Below the pieces are notes generated by a model that worked only from the letters and a program-made list of their open reading frames with translations, was not told the DNA's origin and searched no databases. The position numbers were made by a program, and so were the translations under genes. Below, in pieces: positions 46,283 to 55,247 of a stretch of 64,000 nt of DNA (the first letter of the stretch is position 1; each line of letters begins with the position of its first letter). Where the stretch lies: the NCBI GenBank assembly GCA_020831525.1, contig JAFIGH010000009.1, forward strand, positions 1-64,000. The letters run 5' to 3'. The stretch comes from Opitutales bacterium (lineage in GTDB: Bacteria; Verrucomicrobiota; Verrucomicrobiia; Opitutales; Oceanipulchritudinaceae).

Positions 46283-46504
46283 TCAACCTTCGAAGCCCAG
46301 CTCCATCTGTTGCTCATAGGGCGGAGCGAAGACTCCGATGATGATCCATGGATTGGGGGAGAAGCCGTGAAATTGCTGCATCGTCCCGAGAAACAGATAC
46401 AGGTTCCGTCGCCCGAATTCCTCCAGATACTTGGCCCTTACCTTTTCGAGCGCCACATCCTCTCTCCCGTGGCGGCGAAGGCAGTTCCAGTATAGCTGTC
46501 ATCG
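46283..46504 (-). pseudogene. C-terminal gene remnant
   Basis: A 73-codon open stretch preceded immediately by a stop. It reads QLYWNCLRRHGREDVALEKV, RAKYLEEFGRRNLYLFLGTM, QQFHGFSPNPWIIIGVFAPP and a short end. The compositional quality and 'YLFLGT...FH....NPW.IIGVF.PP' pattern look like the C-terminus of a conserved protein, but no start codon or N-terminus exists. Other frames here are shadows. It separates the STAND gene from the XRE gene and probably records an earlier insertion or deletion within the island. Confidence 0.5.
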
Positions 46505-46535: not shown

Positions 46536-49500
46536 TCAGCCGCCGCTATCCAAAGCCTTCACCGTGTGGAACACCTTGAAGGTCTCACCGAATTCCTCTC
46601 GGCTCCGGCGGGCTTCGTCCACCAGATGGTGTGAAATCCCACGTTCTCCCCATGAAACCCAAATCAGAGCCTCCTTTCTTTGGCGCAGATACTTCATGAG
46701 TAAGTCCTCCTGGACATAGAACCCTTCTTGGCGATCGGCACGCGACTCTCGCCCATAGGTGGTGTTGATCGTCGCCCTGCGCCCACGGGAATCCGCGACA
46801 TCATGAGTCCCAGGAAGCCAGCGCAGCTGTAGCGCCTGCGCAATGTGCCTAGCAAGTAATACGCCGCCGCCGCGTTCGTCGCCAATGGTCGGTCCCGCCC
46901 AACTGAAATCACATACGGGAATGGTGACACTGAAATCCGTCGTCTTCTCCTGCACCTCTTGGACCGGAACGAGTTTCGTTCTGACATTTTCAGCAAAAAA
47001 TACTTTCAACTCCGCAGGAAGTTCCTTCCCGTCCCGAAGAAGGTCGAGCGCGTGCTTTGCATGTTCAAAAGCATTGGGCCCTGTCACAACCGTCTGGGGG
47101 CGTTCTACCGTAACAACTTTTCGTTCAGTTACGAAACGAAGTGCCTCCTTTTGATAGATCCCGAATGTCGAGCACCAAGGGAACTCCCCAGCGAAAGCGT
47201 ACATCTCCTCAGGCTTCTCCGGGGGCCAGCGACCTCGCATGGACTGTTTCTGAAGTGCCCTCATTAGTGCGGATTTTCTCTTCACCGAGACGAGGAACGT
47301 CCGTACGAAGCAAAAGAGGTCGCGACCACTAATCTTGTCTTGGCGCGTAAAGACACCGTCGAGCATCACCCACGGCCCTGTTTCCGCAAGTATGGTTTCG
47401 CGACGCAGGAGCGGCGTTGTGTCCGGCACGGGTCCCCGTGCGATCCATGCCTGCAATGTTCTGTGGCGACCCGCGAGCCAGTCCTTGGTGTTGAGCCGTT
47501 CCTCGCGGGGCGGTTGTGGGAAACTCGGATCGACATCAACCTCTGATGTGCGTTCAGAACCGAAAGAATAGGATTCCGTCAAGAGCCCTAGATCTGCTCG
47601 CATGCCTGCCTGCTCAAGATACGCGATCCGTGAGTATTTCTTGCCGTAACGATCGATGCGTCGACTGGAATCCTCGGTTCTGCTTCGGAAACTCGCAGAA
47701 CTTATGTCGTCGTCTATCTTACCAAATGCTTCAGCCGACCAGCCTAGTTCATGGGTCCGCCAGAGGACCTGAGCCACAACCCGACGATATTCCTTATGGT
47801 TATAATCGTAGTTGCCACGGTCGGGAACCAAGCGTCCAAGAGTGTAATTTTCAAAATCCATCCCAAGAGGAGATGGTCGTGGAATGCGCTCATCCTCCTT
47901 CAGCTCAATTTCGGACCAGTTACTGTGCAAGTCTTCGGGGAAAGGCGGTTGAACTCGCTCCACCTGACGGTCCGTGAGCAACCCCTTGTTTGTGCTTTGG
48001 GCAACCTCGATGATCCTACGGGCGTACTCGCGCATCAGGATGTGGGTAGTCGCATTCGGCGCTTCCGGTGCGAACATTCGCTCAAAAAGGCGAAGCGCAA
48101 AATCTTTGAGTGTTGTGGTTTCGTAGACTTGATCCCGATTAAGGCCATGGCGATCCATCACGACACCATACGAAGCCGCGAGCATTCGCTCCGGCACGTA
48201 GGGATCGCTGATCGAGAGCGATTCAAGAGTAAGCGCGAACAACGCCTTTGGATCACTACGACCGAACCAATATAGAGCGCGGGTGACCTTCAGCCGCATC
48301 TCGTGCGAGGTCGAGGTGAGACACCACATCCTCCAACGGGCCAGAAGAATATCCGCCTCCGATCTGGACCTCCGATCAATCTCCCAGTCTTCACCGACAC
48401 GGGGCAATCCTCGATACGCGCGCTCATAAGCATTTCGGATCATTTCCGTCCAGCGCAGATCGCGCGCAGTATTCGTCATTTGTCGAAGCTGCGCATCGAG
48501 GAATTGCGAATTGAACGGATGTTTCGGAATGGCCCGTGCGCTAAACAGCCTGTCGAAAACCGCAGTTGACGCGGTCGGGTCACGAACGATCTTCGCAATC
48601 TCTTCTACGGTGGCTTGGTCGATTAAGTCGCCTTCTAGCTCGGTAGCCTCGAAGAGGGCCGCGTCTTTCAAGGAACCTGGTACAAGATTCCATAACTGCT
48701 CCCGCTGGTAGCGACGAGGGGTAGTCGCTGCCAGAGCTTTGAATATGTCACCGGCCATTGGGTGCAATTCCTGCCACTGATTGCTGGAGAATCGGACAAC
48801 GATGTCTTGCCGCCGGATCCAAGCAGCGAACTCAGAGCGCCCCATCTCGGCTAAGAGCGCGTTTGCGATCATGTAACCGCCGATCGCATCATAGACAGGG
48901 ATTACACCATAATTGCCATTTCCCAGGGCCACCCGTAGGATAAGGCCTTCCTGCTCCATCATTTTAACCAAGCTCCGATCCCATACTCTGTTGGCGTCGC
49001 CGATCAAGTTGCGGTAAACATCCTGCTCAACCTCGCGGCTGTTCTGATTCCACAGCTGAAGGGCGAGTTTGTTCAGGGCGCGCCGCACGTCTTGGCCGCT
49101 GTATGGGAATTCCTTTGGCGAAAGAGAGCCAATCCGCTCAATAGCACGCGACAGATAACGCTCGAATAGCCCAATTAGAGATCGCGGTAATGCCTCTGGT
49201 CCCACCTCATGCTCGTGAGGCGGCGGGTTGGTCACCTCGCAAAAGATGCGGAGCGTCAATGGGTGGTCGAGCAAGTCGGCAGGGACTTCATTCACTCGCG
49301 CGTTGATTCGAAAATGCTTTAAGTAGCGGGCAATAACCACGGCGTTGTGTGGTCCAAAGCCATTCATCTCAACCAACGGCGTCCCTTCCGGGAGAGCCGC
49401 TCGTACAAAGACAGTTTGGGCCTCGTCTTCCTCATTCGCCGTTGGTGGACGGGAATGCCACTGATCGTCCGACGGCCGCCAGGCTCCCGTCCGGAGGGTG

Positions 49501-50816
49501 ACGACCAAGAGGACGGCGTGGTATTTCTTGAGCAAGGTGTCTGCCGCGCAGAGGGGGACCTTCCAATCCCGCGGGTCTTGAGCCTCATTGAGCCCATCAA
49601 TCACTATCGGTAGTCGGCGGCGAGACCGCTGTCCTGCGGCGTCCAAGGCTGCAACCAATGCCTCAAAGCTAGGCATCGGCTTTCCATTGAGGACAAAAGT
49701 CTTTGCCAAGTCATCAAGGCTATCGCCCGATTTCAGAGCTCTGCCGTGCAAAAGCACCCCTGCCGGACGGTCATTTCTCGGTGCGGTCAATTCAGCAGCG
49801 AGTTGCGTCTTTCCTCCACCAGCATTCGCCATCACCGCTTGAATTCTGATGCTCAGACAGCGATGCATTTCATCAAGCAGACGGCGACCACGATGATGAT
49901 ATTCCAGCCCATTTGTCGCATCAAAATTGATCGACAAGCGGAGCGCTCTCAAACGACGTGGCAGCGAAGACAGTTCCGGAGATAATTGCTGTGGTCGGTA
50001 CTCAAGTGTCTGATGGAGAAGATCGAAATCTCCCTTAGTCAAGAGTTGCGGGACATCTCGCAGCGTGACGGCCAAGGTCTCCAATTCGTCAACAAAAGCC
50101 TTCGTTTCCGCTGCAAGCTTCGCCGGTGGTTGGGGACCGCGTCGCATAACCCGGGATGAGGTTTCGAGTTGTTCAGCGACTTCTAGTAGGGCGTTCCACG
50201 CGACGGCTTCGCCCAGCACGCGACGGCAGGTCCGCTCAGCTTCCACCTCCTGATGGACTTCAGGAAGCCACCGCGTGTGAATGCTGGAGACTGACTCTTG
50301 ACGACGGTCTGCGAGGGTCTCCGGACGGAGCACCCATTCTCCAAAATACGTCTCCCGGAGGATAAGAGCATCGCCAGAGAGAAGATCCTCGGCGTGAGAC
50401 GCGTCCATCGTGTGGAGTCGGAATTTTGACTTGATTCCGTGAAACCACTTGTCATCGCCCGCCGTTAGCGGATGACGCGTCCATAAAACCCAATCGGTAA
50501 GTTCAGGAAACGATTTCTCCGTGGTCCGAATCGCTTTGGCAATCTTCTCCTGTCGCGCCTTACCGAGAGATTTTCCCCGGTCGATTGTATACCAGCGGCA
50601 CTGCCATCCAAACCACGCGCCAGCTTTGCCGAGGTGACAGTCGCTGTGAAGTCTGAGATGGAACTCAATTCCCGGCATCTGTGCCGTCGCTCGAAATGTT
50701 CCAAAGCGGCTATAGTGCAAGCGCACCAAGGCACGACCAAGCGCCTCAAAATTCTCGGTCGCCGCGCCTGGGAGATCTTCGAACCTGGTCCAGTCAACTC
50801 GGGTGGCGGAGGCCAT
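46536..50816 (-). CDS. Nuclease-STAND NTPase (Avs-like) defence protein
   Basis: A 1426-aa protein. Residues ~1-165 look like a PD-(D/E)XK nuclease of the Mrr/Cap4 kind: FEALGRALVRLHYSRFG, PGIEFHLRLHSDC (Glu51) and FGWQCRWY (Gln72, Arg74 where Lys is usual), then TDWVLWTRHPLTAGDDKWF. The central STAND/NACHT ATPase has Walker A MANAGGGKTQLAAEL (Lys336) and Walker B RLPIVIDGLNEAQD (Asp407), with GFGPHNAVVIARYL and VPADLLDHPLTLRIFCEVTN following. The remaining ~850 residues are a helical sensor-like region with no clear repeats. This is the architecture of AVAST-type phage sensors. The C-terminus has its own Trp-rich part (KEALIWVSWGERGISHH). Third gene of the radical SAM operon, 5 bp after the 124-aa gene. 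Confidence 0.8.
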   Translation of the reverse strand: MASATRVDWTRFEDLPGAATENFEALGRALVRLHYSRFGTFRATAQMPGIEFHLRLHSDCHLGKAGAWFGWQCRWYTIDRGKSLGKARQEKIAKAIRTTEKSFPELTDWVLWTRHPLTAGDDKWFHGIKSKFRLHTMDASHAEDLLSGDALILRETYFGEWVLRPETLADRRQESVSSIHTRWLPEVHQEVEAERTCRRVLGEAVAWNALLEVAEQLETSSRVMRRGPQPPAKLAAETKAFVDELETLAVTLRDVPQLLTKGDFDLLHQTLEYRPQQLSPELSSLPRRLRALRLSINFDATNGLEYHHRGRRLLDEMHRCLSIRIQAVMANAGGGKTQLAAELTAPRNDRPAGVLLHGRALKSGDSLDDLAKTFVLNGKPMPSFEALVAALDAAGQRSRRRLPIVIDGLNEAQDPRDWKVPLCAADTLLKKYHAVLLVVTLRTGAWRPSDDQWHSRPPTANEEDEAQTVFVRAALPEGTPLVEMNGFGPHNAVVIARYLKHFRINARVNEVPADLLDHPLTLRIFCEVTNPPPHEHEVGPEALPRSLIGLFERYLSRAIERIGSLSPKEFPYSGQDVRRALNKLALQLWNQNSREVEQDVYRNLIGDANRVWDRSLVKMMEQEGLILRVALGNGNYGVIPVYDAIGGYMIANALLAEMGRSEFAAWIRRQDIVVRFSSNQWQELHPMAGDIFKALAATTPRRYQREQLWNLVPGSLKDAALFEATELEGDLIDQATVEEIAKIVRDPTASTAVFDRLFSARAIPKHPFNSQFLDAQLRQMTNTARDLRWTEMIRNAYERAYRGLPRVGEDWEIDRRSRSEADILLARWRMWCLTSTSHEMRLKVTRALYWFGRSDPKALFALTLESLSISDPYVPERMLAASYGVVMDRHGLNRDQVYETTTLKDFALRLFERMFAPEAPNATTHILMREYARRIIEVAQSTNKGLLTDRQVERVQPPFPEDLHSNWSEIELKEDERIPRPSPLGMDFENYTLGRLVPDRGNYDYNHKEYRRVVAQVLWRTHELGWSAEAFGKIDDDISSASFRSRTEDSSRRIDRYGKKYSRIAYLEQAGMRADLGLLTESYSFGSERTSEVDVDPSFPQPPREERLNTKDWLAGRHRTLQAWIARGPVPDTTPLLRRETILAETGPWVMLDGVFTRQDKISGRDLFCFVRTFLVSVKRKSALMRALQKQSMRGRWPPEKPEEMYAFAGEFPWCSTFGIYQKEALRFVTERKVVTVERPQTVVTGPNAFEHAKHALDLLRDGKELPAELKVFFAENVRTKLVPVQEVQEKTTDFSVTIPVCDFSWAGPTIGDERGGGVLLARHIAQALQLRWLPGTHDVADSRGRRATINTTYGRESRADRQEGFYVQEDLLMKYLRQRKEALIWVSWGERGISHHLVDEARRSREEFGETFKVFHTVKALDSGG

Positions 50817-50821
50817 TTAGT

Positions 50822-51196
50822 CTAGTCGTCTCCTTTTGGGTAATCGTGCGCGGAGAACATCTCCACACGTGCGCCCCGATCGATCAGGGCCTTCCAGAGC
50901 GCCGAAACATCGGATTCGTCCGTTTTAATAATCACCTTTTCCTGCGCAATATCGATACGGAAATCATAACGAAACTGATCCAGCTCGCTTGGACCGATGG
51001 TATGGATCTTGAGCTTCCTGAAAATTTCCATGAGCTCATCCGAATAGATACTTCCGTCAGGCTCGTTTTCCGTAAGGTAGCTCTGCAATTCTTCAATTGC
51101 GTCTTTGGCGGCTTCGGCCGCACCGGCGCTCTTGAAGCGGCCAATCATGACGAGATTCATCGAGTGCTCAGAGCCGTAGGCGTTCCAGATTTTCAT
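50822..51196 (-). CDS. Small conserved protein, possibly DUF6375
   Basis: A 124-aa protein starting MKIWNAYGSEHSMNLVMIGR, with AAKDAIEELQSYLTENEPDG, SDELMEIFRKLKIHTIGPSE, KVIIKTDESDVSALWKALID and a closing GARVEMFSAHDYPKG. The 'YGSEHSMNLVMIG.F' opening matches, as I recall, a small family called DUF6375. The fold looks ferredoxin-like alpha/beta. It is 9 bp downstream of the radical SAM gene and 5 bp upstream of the STAND gene, so stoichiometric co-expression is expected. Function unknown; a substrate carrier or regulatory subunit are both possible. Confidence 0.7.
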   Translation of the reverse strand: MKIWNAYGSEHSMNLVMIGRFKSAGAAEAAKDAIEELQSYLTENEPDGSIYSDELMEIFRKLKIHTIGPSELDQFRYDFRIDIAQEKVIIKTDESDVSALWKALIDRGARVEMFSAHDYPKGDD

Positions 51197-51205
51197 ACAT
51201 TGTGT

Positions 51206-52114
51206 TTATTTTATCAGTTCAAGTTCTTGGAGAGCGGCCATTACCCCTTCCTCGCGGATCTGCACGCCAGTGGATTCGAAAGAACTTCGCTGCAACCGAC
51301 TGGCCGCTGAGATGTGCGCAAACGCACGAAGTCCACTTTCGGCTCCGCATGGATCGCAAGCCCCAAGTTCCGCTGCGTCCGACTCGCTTACAGCCAGGCG
51401 GACTTGTCCACGGTAGCTTCTGACCCATTCCTTCAAACGATCCCGTTCTGCTTGACCCACGCCACACCTCCTAGGGGTCGACTGTTCAGGGAGGAGGAGA
51501 AACTCATGGGCACCTTCGCTATGCGCAAAGTCGATAGCAGCATCCAAGTCATCAATAGTATCTGCATTTACGACGAAGTTCAGTCCAAATGGAGCAACGG
51601 CCCGCACATCCCGCAGGCGCGCCTTGAAAGCGGAAAAGCTACGCCCGCGGAGCTGCTCGTATGTCGCCCCTATCCCGTCCATGCTCAACCGGATGAAATT
51701 CACTTTATCGACGAGTTTCGAAAGCAGTTTTGGTACTAAGTGGTGACCGTGACTTGTAAAAGTGACGGCCAAACTCGTCTGCCTTGCCGCGAACTCACAA
51801 AGATCAGCAAACCTCGGGTGAAGCGAGGGCTCTCCGCCACCGAAGCCGACACCGAGGGCGCCATGTTGGTCAAACTCGCTCAGCCAACCGCAAAGAATCT
51901 GATAATTCAGTGTCGAAGGAATCTTCGGGGCATAGCAATAAGCACACTCCAGATCGCAAGCATTGGTGAGGGCAATGGAGACTTGCCTGGGAGCTGCATG
52001 CCAGGATCCCTCCGGAGGGAGGACCTCGTCAAACAGTACATTAAGCCCAGATTCACGACTGAAATAGTGAACTCCGGCTGGTCCGATGCGAACTTTTGCT
52101 GTTGAAGATGACAT
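51206..52114 (-). CDS. Radical SAM protein of the defence island
   Basis: A 302-aa radical SAM enzyme. The [4Fe-4S] motif CDLECAYC (Cys53, Cys57, Cys60) sits in QVSIALTNACDLECAYCYAP, followed by VGFGGGEPSLHPRF (the SAM-binding GGE) and VNFIRLSMDGIGATYEQLRG. The C-terminal third has ELGACDPCGAE, two cysteines short of a full SPASM cluster. The residues after the third Cys are not those of viperins (CFH). Start ATG 52114 is preferred over 52141. It follows hsdS by 49 bp and opens the three-gene cluster with the 124-aa protein and the STAND NTPase. Likely a peptide- or nucleotide-modifying enzyme; the substrate is unknown. Confidence 0.85.
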   Translation of the reverse strand: MSSSTAKVRIGPAGVHYFSRESGLNVLFDEVLPPEGSWHAAPRQVSIALTNACDLECAYCYAPKIPSTLNYQILCGWLSEFDQHGALGVGFGGGEPSLHPRFADLCEFAARQTSLAVTFTSHGHHLVPKLLSKLVDKVNFIRLSMDGIGATYEQLRGRSFSAFKARLRDVRAVAPFGLNFVVNADTIDDLDAAIDFAHSEGAHEFLLLPEQSTPRRCGVGQAERDRLKEWVRSYRGQVRLAVSESDAAELGACDPCGAESGLRAFAHISAASRLQRSSFESTGVQIREEGVMAALQELELIK

Positions 52115-52163
52115 AAACGCAAACGTAGCCAAGGGCACCATTGTTAAGTGGTGGCATGGCTAG

Positions 52164-53285
<1,122 letters not shown>

Positions 53286-53897
53286 GCCTCCAAAATCTCC
53301 ACCACGTTCTCCGCGATGCGTTCCTCCAGCTCGCGCGCTTCGGCGTTGAGGACTTCGAGTTCCTCGTTGAGGGCGGCGAGCTTGGCCTTGAAATCCTCGT
53401 CGCTCACGTGCTCGCCCTTGGCCACGCCGACATAGCGACCGGGGTTGAGCGACCAGCCCTGGGCTTCGATTTCGGCGAGGGTGGCGGCTTTGCACAAGCC
53501 GGGCACATCGACGTAGGCCCCGGAGCCTCCGAAGACTTCGTCCCACTTCTTTTTCGAGCCCATGGCGAACTCGGGTTTTTGGCTGCGGTAGAGGCGGACG
53601 ATGTTGGCGAGGAACTCGAGTTGGGCGTCGGTGAAATCGCGGTGGGCGCGGTCGATTTGGCGGTAGATGTGACGGGCGTCGACAAAAAGAACTTTGTCCG
53701 CGCGGTCGGTGCCGGCTTTGCTTTTGTCGAAGAAGAAGAGCGTGCAGGGGAGGGTGACGGTGAAGAAGAAGTTGGGGCCGATGGCGACCATCACGTCCAC
53801 GTGACCCGAGCGGATGATTTTTTCGCGGATCTCCTGCTCGGAGGCGCGGGCGTCGGCGGCGGAGTTGGCCATGACAAAGCCCGCGCGGCCCGCCCCG

Positions 53898-53916
53898 GCC
53901 TGAGCCTGTCGAAGGC
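53898..53916. repeat. Short dispersed repeat CTGAGCCTGTCGAAGG at the hsdM frameshift
   Basis: The plus strand reads CCTGAGCCTGTCGAAGGC, the core of a REP-type word seen in many bacteria. It lies exactly between the AALKP and GRAGFVM codons of hsdM and accounts for the frame change. Confidence 0.7.
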
Positions 53917-54093
53917 TTCAGGGCCGCATAAAAGTGCTGAATCCAGAGGTAGTTTCCGTTGTCGGTGCGGGGTAGGCCGAAGGGATAGCGGGGATCACCG
54001 GCGAGGCGTTCCTTGTCGATCTTGCTGACGTTGAAGGGGGGATTGGCCATCACGAAATCAAAACGGCCAACGCCCGTTTTGATTTCGTGATCA

Positions 54094-54129
54094 CTCCCTC
54101 TCCCGGTGGGAGAGGGCTGGGGTGAGGGT
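54094..54129. repeat. Palindromic CCCTCTCC element in hsdM, copy 1
   Basis: TCCCTCTCCCGGTGGGAGAG then GGCTGGGGTGAGGGT. Hairpin arms flank GGTG, and the GGGGTGAGGG tail follows. Translated in frame as [13 protein letters not shown]. Confidence 0.8.
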
Positions 54130-54297
54130 AATTCGACCGAATTATGCAAATCCTCGTAATAGGTGTTCCCCTGGCGAATGTCGCCACTGAGGCCGTGCAC
54201 GGCGAGGTTGAGGCGGGCGAGGCGGGCCGTCTCGATGACGCGCTCCTGGCCGTGGAGGGAGATCTCATGTGTCGGATTCCCTGAATAGCCGGGCCCC

Positions 54298-54332
54298 TCC
54301 CTCTCCCCCTGGGAGAGGGCCGGGGTGAGGGT
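54298..54332. repeat. Palindromic CCCTCTCC element in hsdM, copy 2
   Basis: TCCCTCTCCCCCTGGGAGAG then GGCCGGGGTGAGGGT, nearly the same as copy 1 and the hsdR copy and in the same orientation. Translated as [11 protein letters not shown]. Confidence 0.8.
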
Positions 54333-54822
54333 GCCTTTGGCATGGGTGAGGGTTCGGTTCGATTTGTGGGCTTCGACAAAGCGGGCCGACTGGATGAACA
54401 TGCCGCCGGAGCCGCAGGCGGGGTCGAGGATGCGGCCGTGGTAGGGCTCGAGAATTTCCACGATGAGGCGGACGATGGAGGTGGGGGTGTAGAACTCGCC
54501 GCCTTTTTGCCCCTCGGACATGGCGAACTTGCCGAGGAAGTATTCGTAGATGAGCCCGAAGGTGTCGCCGTCTTTGTCCATGGGAATGGAGGCCATGGTC
54601 TTGAGGAGGGCGGCAAGGGTGCGGCTTTCGAGGACCTGGTAGCTCTTCGGGAGGACGTCGGCGAGGTCCGGGTTTTCCTTTTCGATGAGGCGCATGGCAT
54701 CGTTGATCGCCTGCCCGACGGCCGCGCCCTCGGGCAGGCTCAGGAGGTGGGAAAACCGCGCCTCCGCGGGCAGGTAGAGGACGCCCTTGGCGTGGTAGTC
54801 GTGGGGGCCGATTTTGCGCCGA

Positions 54823-54905
54823 CTATGCTGCGCACCCTCACCCCCGCCTCTCCTATGCTCCGCACCCTCACCCCCGCCTCTCCCAGAGGGAGAGGGGCTG
54901 GGAGA
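54823..54905. repeat. Inverted CCCTCTCC element with a 30-bp tandem duplication in hsdM
   Basis: Two 30-bp units (54823-54852 and 54853-54882) differ at one base and contain the tail word CACCCTCACCCCCGCCTCTC. The second unit continues into the hairpin CTCTCCCAGAGGGAGAGG. Orientation is opposite to the other copies. The element keeps the hsdM frame open (residues ~63-92). Confidence 0.75.
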
Positions 54906-55247
54906 GGGGTGGATTTCCTGCTCGACGGCGGTGAAGCGAACATCGGCGTAGCGGAGGAAGATAAGGCCGAGAACGATGGTCGAGTATTCGGAGGGCTTGA
55001 GGGCGGCGCTGGCCCAAAGCTGGTTGGCGGCGTCCCAAAGCTGCTTTTCAAGCGCGGCGTGGGAATCGTTGGTGGTAGCGGGTTCGGTCCAGATCATCGG
55101 GAAGGTGGAAAACCCTACCTTGCGGGGGAGGTCCGGGCGGACAAGTTAATTCGGGCGGAGAAGTGTGTAAAGGGAAAGGGAGGCGGAAAGCGGAACGGGA
55201 AAGAGGAAAGCGGAAAACCTGGCGGTGCGACCACCTCAGTGCCGCCC

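What the first reader, a model, noticed from the sequence alone, without database searches (positions are those of the whole stretch)
46536..52114. Three-gene unit: radical SAM enzyme, 124-aa protein and 1426-aa nuclease-STAND NTPase
Seen: three co-directional genes with gaps of 9 and 5 bp inside a restriction island. The large protein has a PD-(D/E)XK-like N-terminus, Walker A (Lys336) and Walker B (Asp407), and a long helical region. Known: STAND NTPases with nuclease domains (AVAST) sense phage proteins; viperins show that radical SAM enzymes can be antiviral. Inference: this pairs a radical SAM enzyme that is not a viperin with an Avs-like sensor, possibly modifying a peptide, nucleotide or the NTPase itself. 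I do not know a described system with this composition. It is my best candidate for an undescribed system.
Basis: partly seen in the sequence, partly recalled or inferred. Interest (0 to 1): 0.88.

Follow-up and report, generated by a model that had tools for sequence, protein, structure and literature searches.

The report
Radical-SAM-coupled Avs2-like phage-defence unit
Three adjacent genes, found together in at least 17 bacterial phyla and in about 0.5% of complete E. coli genomes, look like an unnamed anti-phage system in which a sensor-nuclease of the Avs2 kind is tied to a radical SAM enzyme and a small protein that the enzyme probably modifies.

Summary
The minus strand holds a radical SAM enzyme (52114-51206), a 124-aa protein (51196-50822) and a 1426-aa STAND NTPase (50816-46536). 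The 124-aa protein is DUF6375 (PF19902, E 5e-42). The NTPase is a distant, collinear relative of Avs2 with an Avs2/Avs4-type nuclease end (GxE...QxK).

The unit is a conserved cassette. DUF6375 was found at 80 loci in 16 phyla. The radical SAM gene lies directly upstream in 78 of 79 testable cases and the NTPase directly downstream in 72 of 75. The first two genes overlap by 4 bp in most loci. In 249 Pseudomonadaceae genomes all three genes occur in the same three; in 194 cyanobacterial genomes DUF6375 and the NTPase occur in the same three. The whole unit is in 26 of 5,426 E. coli genomes. The NTPases form one clade apart from classical Avs2, which lacks both partners. Surroundings are defence islands.

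I found no name for it in PADLOC, NCBIfam or the open papers searched. The enzyme is not a viperin; its fold is nearest to peptide maturases. DUF6375's near-invariant N-terminal tail is predicted disordered, so it is the likeliest substrate. That step is inferred.

The parts
51206..52114 (-). radical SAM enzyme, 302 aa from the likely start (alternative start 52141, 311 aa); peptide-maturase-like fold, no conserved auxiliary-cluster cysteines
   Evidence: Pfam PF04055 E 2.3e-9; AF2 pLDDT 92.5; Foldseek SkfB E 3e-16, SuiB, viperins
51935..51958 (-). CxxxCxxC [4Fe-4S]/SAM motif (Cys62, 66, 69 of the 311-aa form)
   Evidence: invariant in 73 of 73 relatives
50822..51196 (-). DUF6375 protein, 124 aa, ferredoxin-like fold
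   Evidence: PF19902 E 4.7e-42, 144 bits against cut-off 27.5; AF2 mean pLDDT 86, beta-alpha-beta-beta-alpha-beta order with two inserted helices
51155..51196 (-). near-invariant N-terminal tail MKIWxxYGSEHSxN of DUF6375, mostly predicted disordered; candidate substrate of the radical SAM enzyme
   Evidence: W4, G8, E10, H11, S12, N14 invariant in 74 sequences; pLDDT 45 for residues 1-10; mean column identity 0.86 against 0.50 for residues 22-107
46536..50816 (-). 1426-aa Avs2-related STAND NTPase with N-terminal nuclease domain
   Evidence: NCBIfam Avs2 E 2.6e-69; PADLOC Avs2 1.5e-90; PDB 9o4e Avs2 E 1.1e-88 by family profile
50307..50816 (-). N-terminal PD-(D/E)XK-type nuclease domain, residues 1-170 (E24, E51, Q72-C-R74)
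   Evidence: most conserved part of the NTPase (0.65); related to the N-terminus of Avs4 8dgf E 1.4e-5 and Avs2 PDLC02164
48957..49856 (-). STAND NTPase domain, about residues 321-620; Walker A Lys336 codon 49809-49811, Walker B Asp407 codon 49596-49598
   Evidence: G333, G335, K336, D407, E411 invariant in 56 of 56
46539..48956 (-). helical sensor region, about residues 621-1426, collinear with the Avs2 C-terminal half
   Evidence: hmmsearch alignment to 9o4e, profile positions 161-966 and 977-1312

Best explanation
It is a dedicated three-gene anti-phage system. The large protein is the sensor and effector. Its helical C-terminal half recognises a phage protein (by analogy with Avs2 the large terminase or a similarly shaped protein); recognition lets the STAND domain bind ATP and assemble; the N-terminal nuclease domains then cut DNA and stop the infection. 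The radical SAM enzyme is a maturase. It most likely modifies the invariant, flexible N-terminal tail of the DUF6375 protein made by the next, translationally coupled gene. Modified DUF6375 then acts as an obligatory adaptor or licence for the sensor, by binding it to hold it off, to make it competent, or to extend what it recognises. Shown here: conserved composition, order and coupling; Avs2 homology across the NTPase and sensor; conservation of catalytic motifs; defence-island setting; peptide-maturase-like enzyme fold; conserved, predicted-disordered tail. Inferred: anti-phage activity, the trigger, DNA cutting, the tail as substrate, and the licensing role. That it is a real three-gene defence cassette built on an Avs2-like sensor I hold at about 0.9; the confidence given is for the whole statement, tail modification included.
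For: Cassette: radical SAM upstream in 78/79 and NTPase downstream in 72/75 testable DUF6375 loci, ATGA overlap of genes 1 and 2 in 64 loci. Co-occurrence: the same 3 of 249 Pseudomonadaceae genomes for all three genes and the same 3 of 194 cyanobacteria for DUF6375 and the NTPase, with a score gap of about 1800 against at most 269 bits to other Avs2 relatives. Matching pairwise distances of the three proteins, r 0.80-0.89 against at most 0.16 in shuffles. One NTPase clade, support 100. Avs2 homology across the protein. Nuclease and Walker residues conserved. Defence neighbours against few in control regions; plasmids and tRNA-linked islands. Enzyme fold nearest to SkfB and SuiB. DUF6375 tail conserved yet disordered.
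Against: No experiment exists. Low model confidence in the tail may only mean that it folds on a partner, so it could be a docking motif rather than a substrate. The enzyme lacks conserved auxiliary-cluster cysteines, unlike most known SPASM or Twitch peptide maturases. The window's nuclease has Arg where most relatives have Lys. Two loci keep enzyme and DUF6375 without an NTPase: L084, with an IS insertion, and L080.
Confidence: 0.5

Rival explanations
1. The radical SAM enzyme modifies the NTPase (or another protein or nucleic acid), and DUF6375 is the recognition or chaperone subunit that brings the substrate to it, with its conserved tail as a docking motif.
For: Strict linkage and matching distances of all three; several invariant NTPase stretches such as RYGKKY 1056-1061; the ferredoxin-like fold of DUF6375 is common in binding domains.
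Against: The RYGKKY-like motif is also present in stand-alone Avs2 (9o4e), so it does not need this enzyme. The tightest coupling is enzyme with DUF6375 (4-bp overlap). The most invariant unstructured segment is in DUF6375.
Confidence: 0.25
2. The enzyme makes a small antiviral or signalling molecule (a modified nucleotide, as viperin does) and DUF6375 handles it; the NTPase is a co-selected partner or its receptor.
For: Viperin-like folds are among the nearest structures and viperin profiles hit the core.
Against: The hits cover only the radical SAM core (residues 54-170, 58 bits; NCBIfam viperin 46 of 180 bits). The segment K-x-N-F before GGEP, which from memory binds CTP in viperin, is G-V-G-F here, with G99 invariant in 73 of 73. 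No kinase or nucleotide enzyme is part of the cassette.
Confidence: 0.12
3. It is simply an Avs2 system that carries two accessory genes of minor effect, so the NTPase works alone like classical Avs2.
For: Clear homology and collinearity with Avs2; classical Avs2 genes on the plasmids examined have neither partner.
Against: The NTPase clade keeps both partners across at least 17 phyla with single-copy linkage and forms its own branch. Dispensable accessories would be lost more often.
Confidence: 0.13

Closest known systems
AVAST type 2 (Avs2; PDB 9o4e, NCBIfam NF041813, PADLOC PDLC02161-02166)
   Same: STAND NTPase and helical sensor region collinear over most of the protein; N-terminal nuclease with a G-V-E ... 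Q-x-K motif
   Different: Scores 234 of the 1000 bits NCBIfam requires; separate clade; most full-length relatives within the clade are 28-44% identical to the window protein, classical Avs2 22-25%; almost always with radical SAM and DUF6375 genes, which Avs2 lacks
Avs4 (PDB 8dgf)
   Same: N-terminal nuclease domain related (E 1.4e-5 over residues 1-113)
   Different: No detected match of the rest to the Avs4 structure; Avs4 is a single gene
Prokaryotic viperins (pVip)
   Same: Antiviral radical SAM enzymes; same core fold
   Different: Different substrate-site residues, no C-terminal viperin region aligned, far below family cut-off
RiPP radical SAM maturases SkfB, SuiB, PqqE
   Same: SkfB and SuiB are the nearest solved structures; a small protein gene directly coupled to the enzyme gene
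   Different: No conserved auxiliary-cluster cysteines; the partner is a folded 124-175-aa protein, not a short peptide; sits beside an immune sensor
FtsH ternary conflict systems with a radical SAM effector (Kaur et al. 2020, PMC7159879)
   Same: Radical SAM enzyme in a conflict system, there too proposed to modify a peptide effector
   Different: vWA-MoxR-FtsH architecture, a different system from an Avs-type sensor with DUF6375
AVAST type 1 (Avs1; from memory)
   Same: A multi-gene Avs with accessory enzymes
   Different: Its accessory genes are of other kinds, and the sensor belongs to another Avs type

Membership tests
Avs2 (AVAST type 2) | Score above the curated NCBIfam Avs2 cut-off | tested here: not met
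   234.4 bits against 1000
Avs2 (AVAST type 2) | STAND NTPase and sensor region collinear with Avs2 | tested here: met
   Family profile against 9o4e, E 1.1e-88, positions 161-966 and 977-1312
Avs2 (AVAST type 2) | Stand-alone gene | tested here: not met
   Radical SAM and DUF6375 genes upstream in nearly all loci; classical Avs2 genes stand alone
Avs2 (AVAST type 2) | Falls inside the classical Avs2 clade | tested here: not met
   56 system NTPases on one side, 12 classical Avs2 on the other, support 100 (the root between them is assumed)
Avs2 (AVAST type 2) | Recognition of phage large terminase | not testable with these tools
   Needs a co-expression or infection assay
Viperin / pVip | Family score above cut-off over the full length | tested here: not met
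   46.4 of 180 bits, residues 54-170 only; PADLOC pVip 57.6 bits, same stretch
Viperin / pVip | Lys and Asn of the CTP site before GGEP (residue roles from memory) | tested here: not met
   Aligned segment is G-V-G-F in place of K-I-N-F; G99 invariant in 73 of 73
Viperin / pVip | ddhNTP production | not testable with these tools
   Needs biochemistry
RiPP radical SAM peptide maturase | CxxxCxxC core with nearest structures among peptide maturases | tested here: met
RiPP radical SAM peptide maturase | Auxiliary Fe-S cluster (SPASM or Twitch cysteines) | tested here: not met
   Outside the motif only C115 (71/73), within the barrel, and C262 (53/73) are common; no C-terminal cysteine set
RiPP radical SAM peptide maturase | A coupled precursor with a conserved, flexible segment | tested here: inconclusive
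   DUF6375 is coupled and has such a tail, but modification is unproven
DUF6375 (PF19902) | Score above the Pfam gathering cut-off | tested here: met
   144.2 against 27.5 bits
PADLOC candidate systems (PDC, HEC) | Gene 2 matches a listed component | tested here: not met
   No PADLOC match for the 124-aa protein

The most novel reading that the evidence does not exclude
A bacterial NLR-like immune sensor that is licensed by a radical-chemistry modification: the enzyme installs a carbon-centred change (a crosslink, epimer or oxidised residue) in the W-x-x-Y-G-S-E-H-S tail of DUF6375, and only the modified protein lets the Avs2-like sensor signal.
Probability: 0.37. Interest if true: 0.93.

Novelty: new variant of a known kind. 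Interest (0 to 1): 0.82.

Why it matters
Avs proteins are among the best studied bacterial counterparts of animal and plant NLR immune receptors and, as far as I know, are thought to act alone or with simple partners. A widespread branch that nearly always keeps a radical SAM enzyme and a small companion would show that post-translational radical chemistry can control an immune receptor, and would give a second antiviral use of radical SAM enzymes beside viperin. Intact copies in E. coli make it testable at once. Annotation pipelines now call the parts hypothetical, or could half-label them as Avs2 or viperin, so surveys miss the system.

Tried and rejected
Viperin identity was rejected on score, coverage and substrate-site residues. 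Chance neighbourhood was rejected. A biosynthetic cluster was rejected: the sensor, not a transporter or further maturase, follows in 72 of 75 loci. A phage or prophage home was not supported: no match in viral contigs, no DUF6375 in phages and only a weak NTPase fragment. DUF6375 has no informative relative among solved structures by sequence or fold (generic ferredoxin-like scaffolds only, E above 0.01). Pfam gave no convincing family for the N-terminal nuclease. I asked whether the tail's invariance is an artefact of the search pattern, which includes residues 7-15. W4, G19 and F21 lie outside the pattern and are invariant; all 14 sequences that also match the other, C-terminal pattern carry the tail motif; so do the five distinct plasmid copies found without the pattern. 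Choosing a genome group by locus id failed, as did laying out the whole genome. Flank screening counts families, not proteins, so the defence-island enrichment is qualitative. Only two structure predictions were allowed and no complex could be modelled.

Full report
Observation. Three co-directional ORFs on the minus strand were confirmed: a radical SAM enzyme, a 124-aa protein and a 1426-aa protein, separated by 9 and 5 bp. The long form of gene 1 starts at 52141, but the start at 52114 is more likely because the extra residues are unstructured.

Identity of the parts. Gene 1 is a radical SAM enzyme (PF04055 E 2.3e-9). Gene 2 is DUF6375 (PF19902 E 4.7e-42), a family on which the open literature searched holds no paper. 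Gene 3 has no Pfam match but hits Avs2 in NCBIfam (E 2.6e-69, 234 bits, cut-off 1000) and PADLOC (1.5e-90). A profile of 56 relatives aligns with solved Avs2 9o4e along two long collinear stretches (E 1.1e-88). Its first 170 residues are the most conserved part (0.65 mean column identity). They relate to the N-terminus of Avs4 (8dgf, E 1.4e-5) and of an Avs2 model. The motif E...GVE...GWQCK fits the GVE...GWQAK of classical Avs2, a PD-(D/E)XK-type nuclease. The window and 10 other relatives carry Arg for the last Lys, which leaves its activity open.

A conserved cassette. On plasmids, the 16 records with DUF6375 are the same 16 with a full-length enzyme homologue: Picosynechococcus, Synechococcus, two Deinococcus and 12 Vibrio. 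Four representatives show the same three genes in the same order. The second Deinococcus has an IS element in place of the NTPase. In one genome for each of about 85,000 species, a scan for DUF6375 gave 80 loci. The enzyme gene is upstream in 78 of 79 testable cases and the NTPase downstream in 72 of 75, the window included. Genes 1 and 2 overlap by 4 bp in 64 loci. Exceptions are explained or few: L084 has an IS insertion, L078 is a remnant behind a PglZ-like gene, and L080 has the pair alone. The loci span 16 named phyla, and the plasmids add Deinococcota.

Linkage in both directions. In 249 Pseudomonadaceae genomes DUF6375, the enzyme and the NTPase clade each occur in the same three. In 194 cyanobacteria DUF6375 and the NTPase occur in the same three. 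Other Avs2 relatives there score at most 193 and 269 bits against about 1800, and none of those genomes has DUF6375. Within 31 host genomes the enzyme is single-copy, and the next radical SAM paralogue is far off. Pairwise distances of the three proteins correlate at 0.80-0.89, against at most 0.16 in shuffles. The 56 NTPases form one side of a branch with support 100 against 12 classical Avs2. Five classical Avs2 genes examined lack both partners.

Setting and mobility. The window's neighbours are HsdR, PDC-M03AB, PDC-M19A, PDC-S01 and a type I methylase-specificity pair. Flanks of 25 other loci hold type I and IV restriction, MADS, Dsr1, Kiwa, SIR2-HerA and reverse-transcriptase defence genes. 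Control stretches of host genomes gave few, mainly one helicase and one type II restriction set. The unit is in 26 of 5,426 complete E. coli genomes at 81-82% identity to the Xenorhabdus copy. The three E. coli copies examined lie in islands near tRNA-Phe, tRNA-Asn and tRNA-Thr; in one of them the NTPase gene is split. Presence is sporadic: about 1 to 1.5% of species sampled in two groups that were chosen because they contain it, and 2 of 338 in the window's phylum. That pattern suits a defence system.

The enzyme. Its CxxxCxxC and GGEP motifs are invariant, and no C-terminal cysteine set is. The model is confident (pLDDT 92.5). By fold the nearest solved structures are SkfB (TM 0.72), SuiB (up to 0.74) and viperins (0.57-0.67 by query length). 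By sequence SkfB and PqqE lead. Viperin membership fails on score, coverage and the residues before GGEP.

The small protein. The model is a ferredoxin-like fold with no specific solved relative. The most conserved stretch, residues 1-14, is mostly predicted to be disordered: pLDDT 45 over residues 1-10, mean column identity 0.86 against 0.50 for residues 22-107. W4, G8, E10, H11, S12 and N14 are invariant in 74 sequences. The search pattern covered residues 7-15, so that part is partly selected. The sequences that also match the other pattern, and the plasmid copies, show the same tail.

Mechanism. The best-supported reading is a sensor-nuclease of the Avs2 kind whose action needs DUF6375 modified at its tail by the coupled enzyme. 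The sensor and nuclease steps rest on homology. The tail as substrate rests on coupling, fold and conservation. The licensing role is inference. Kaur et al. (PMC7159879) proposed a radical SAM effector that modifies a peptide in another conflict system, so the idea has a parallel, but the architecture there is different.

Novelty. No library, annotation or paper searched names this trio. RefSeq calls the parts radical SAM protein, DUF6375 family protein and hypothetical or ATP-binding protein. Subscription papers and preprints were mostly not searchable, and the PADLOC copy dates from 2023, so prior naming cannot be excluded. I class it as a new variant of the Avs kind. It would be more if the enzyme is shown to license the sensor.

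Noticed in passing
window 53282-55097 (-): The 977-aa ORF read as HsdM-HsdS is composite: the HsdM C-terminus lies in another frame (53282-53872), so hsdM is frameshifted. A repeat of the type CCTTCGACAGGCTCAGG lies at 53899-53915, next to the break.
   Followed up: partly
window 54094-54129, 54297-54332, 54874-54909: Three copies of a 36-nt palindromic repeat (CCCTCTCCC...GGGAGAGGG) lie in frame inside the hsdM coding sequence, giving proline/serine/glycine-rich inserts.
   Followed up: partly
window 46283-46480 (-): Just behind the NTPase is an open C-terminal fragment (...RNLYLFLGTMQQFHGFSPNPWIIIGVFAPPYEQQMELGFEG) of an unidentified protein, perhaps a remnant of a former neighbour.
   Followed up: no
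L078:8340-10561: A DUF6375 gene without its partners directly follows a PglZ-like gene with the same 4-bp overlap (Phycisphaerae); its C-terminus is replaced, so probably a rearranged remnant inside a BREX-like locus.
   Followed up: partly
L152:19392-21680: In E. coli MLI107 the NTPase gene overlaps by 4 bp a 762-aa TIR-like gene (PADLOC PDC-S73), a possible fourth partner in that lineage.
   Followed up: partly
L005:4646-15178: In Vibrio the unit rides on large, mostly conjugative plasmids; in the record examined it lies beside qnrVC6 and dfrA resistance genes. The same copy recurs in 12 records.
   Followed up: partly
window 51206-52114: PADLOC viperin models hit this enzyme at E 3e-16 over the core only, so automated scans without a score cut-off may miscall it as a viperin.
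   Followed up: yes
L089:6001-10523: Paraburkholderia plasmid copy of the NTPase C-terminal half, split by an IS66 element; no DUF6375 in that record.
   Followed up: no
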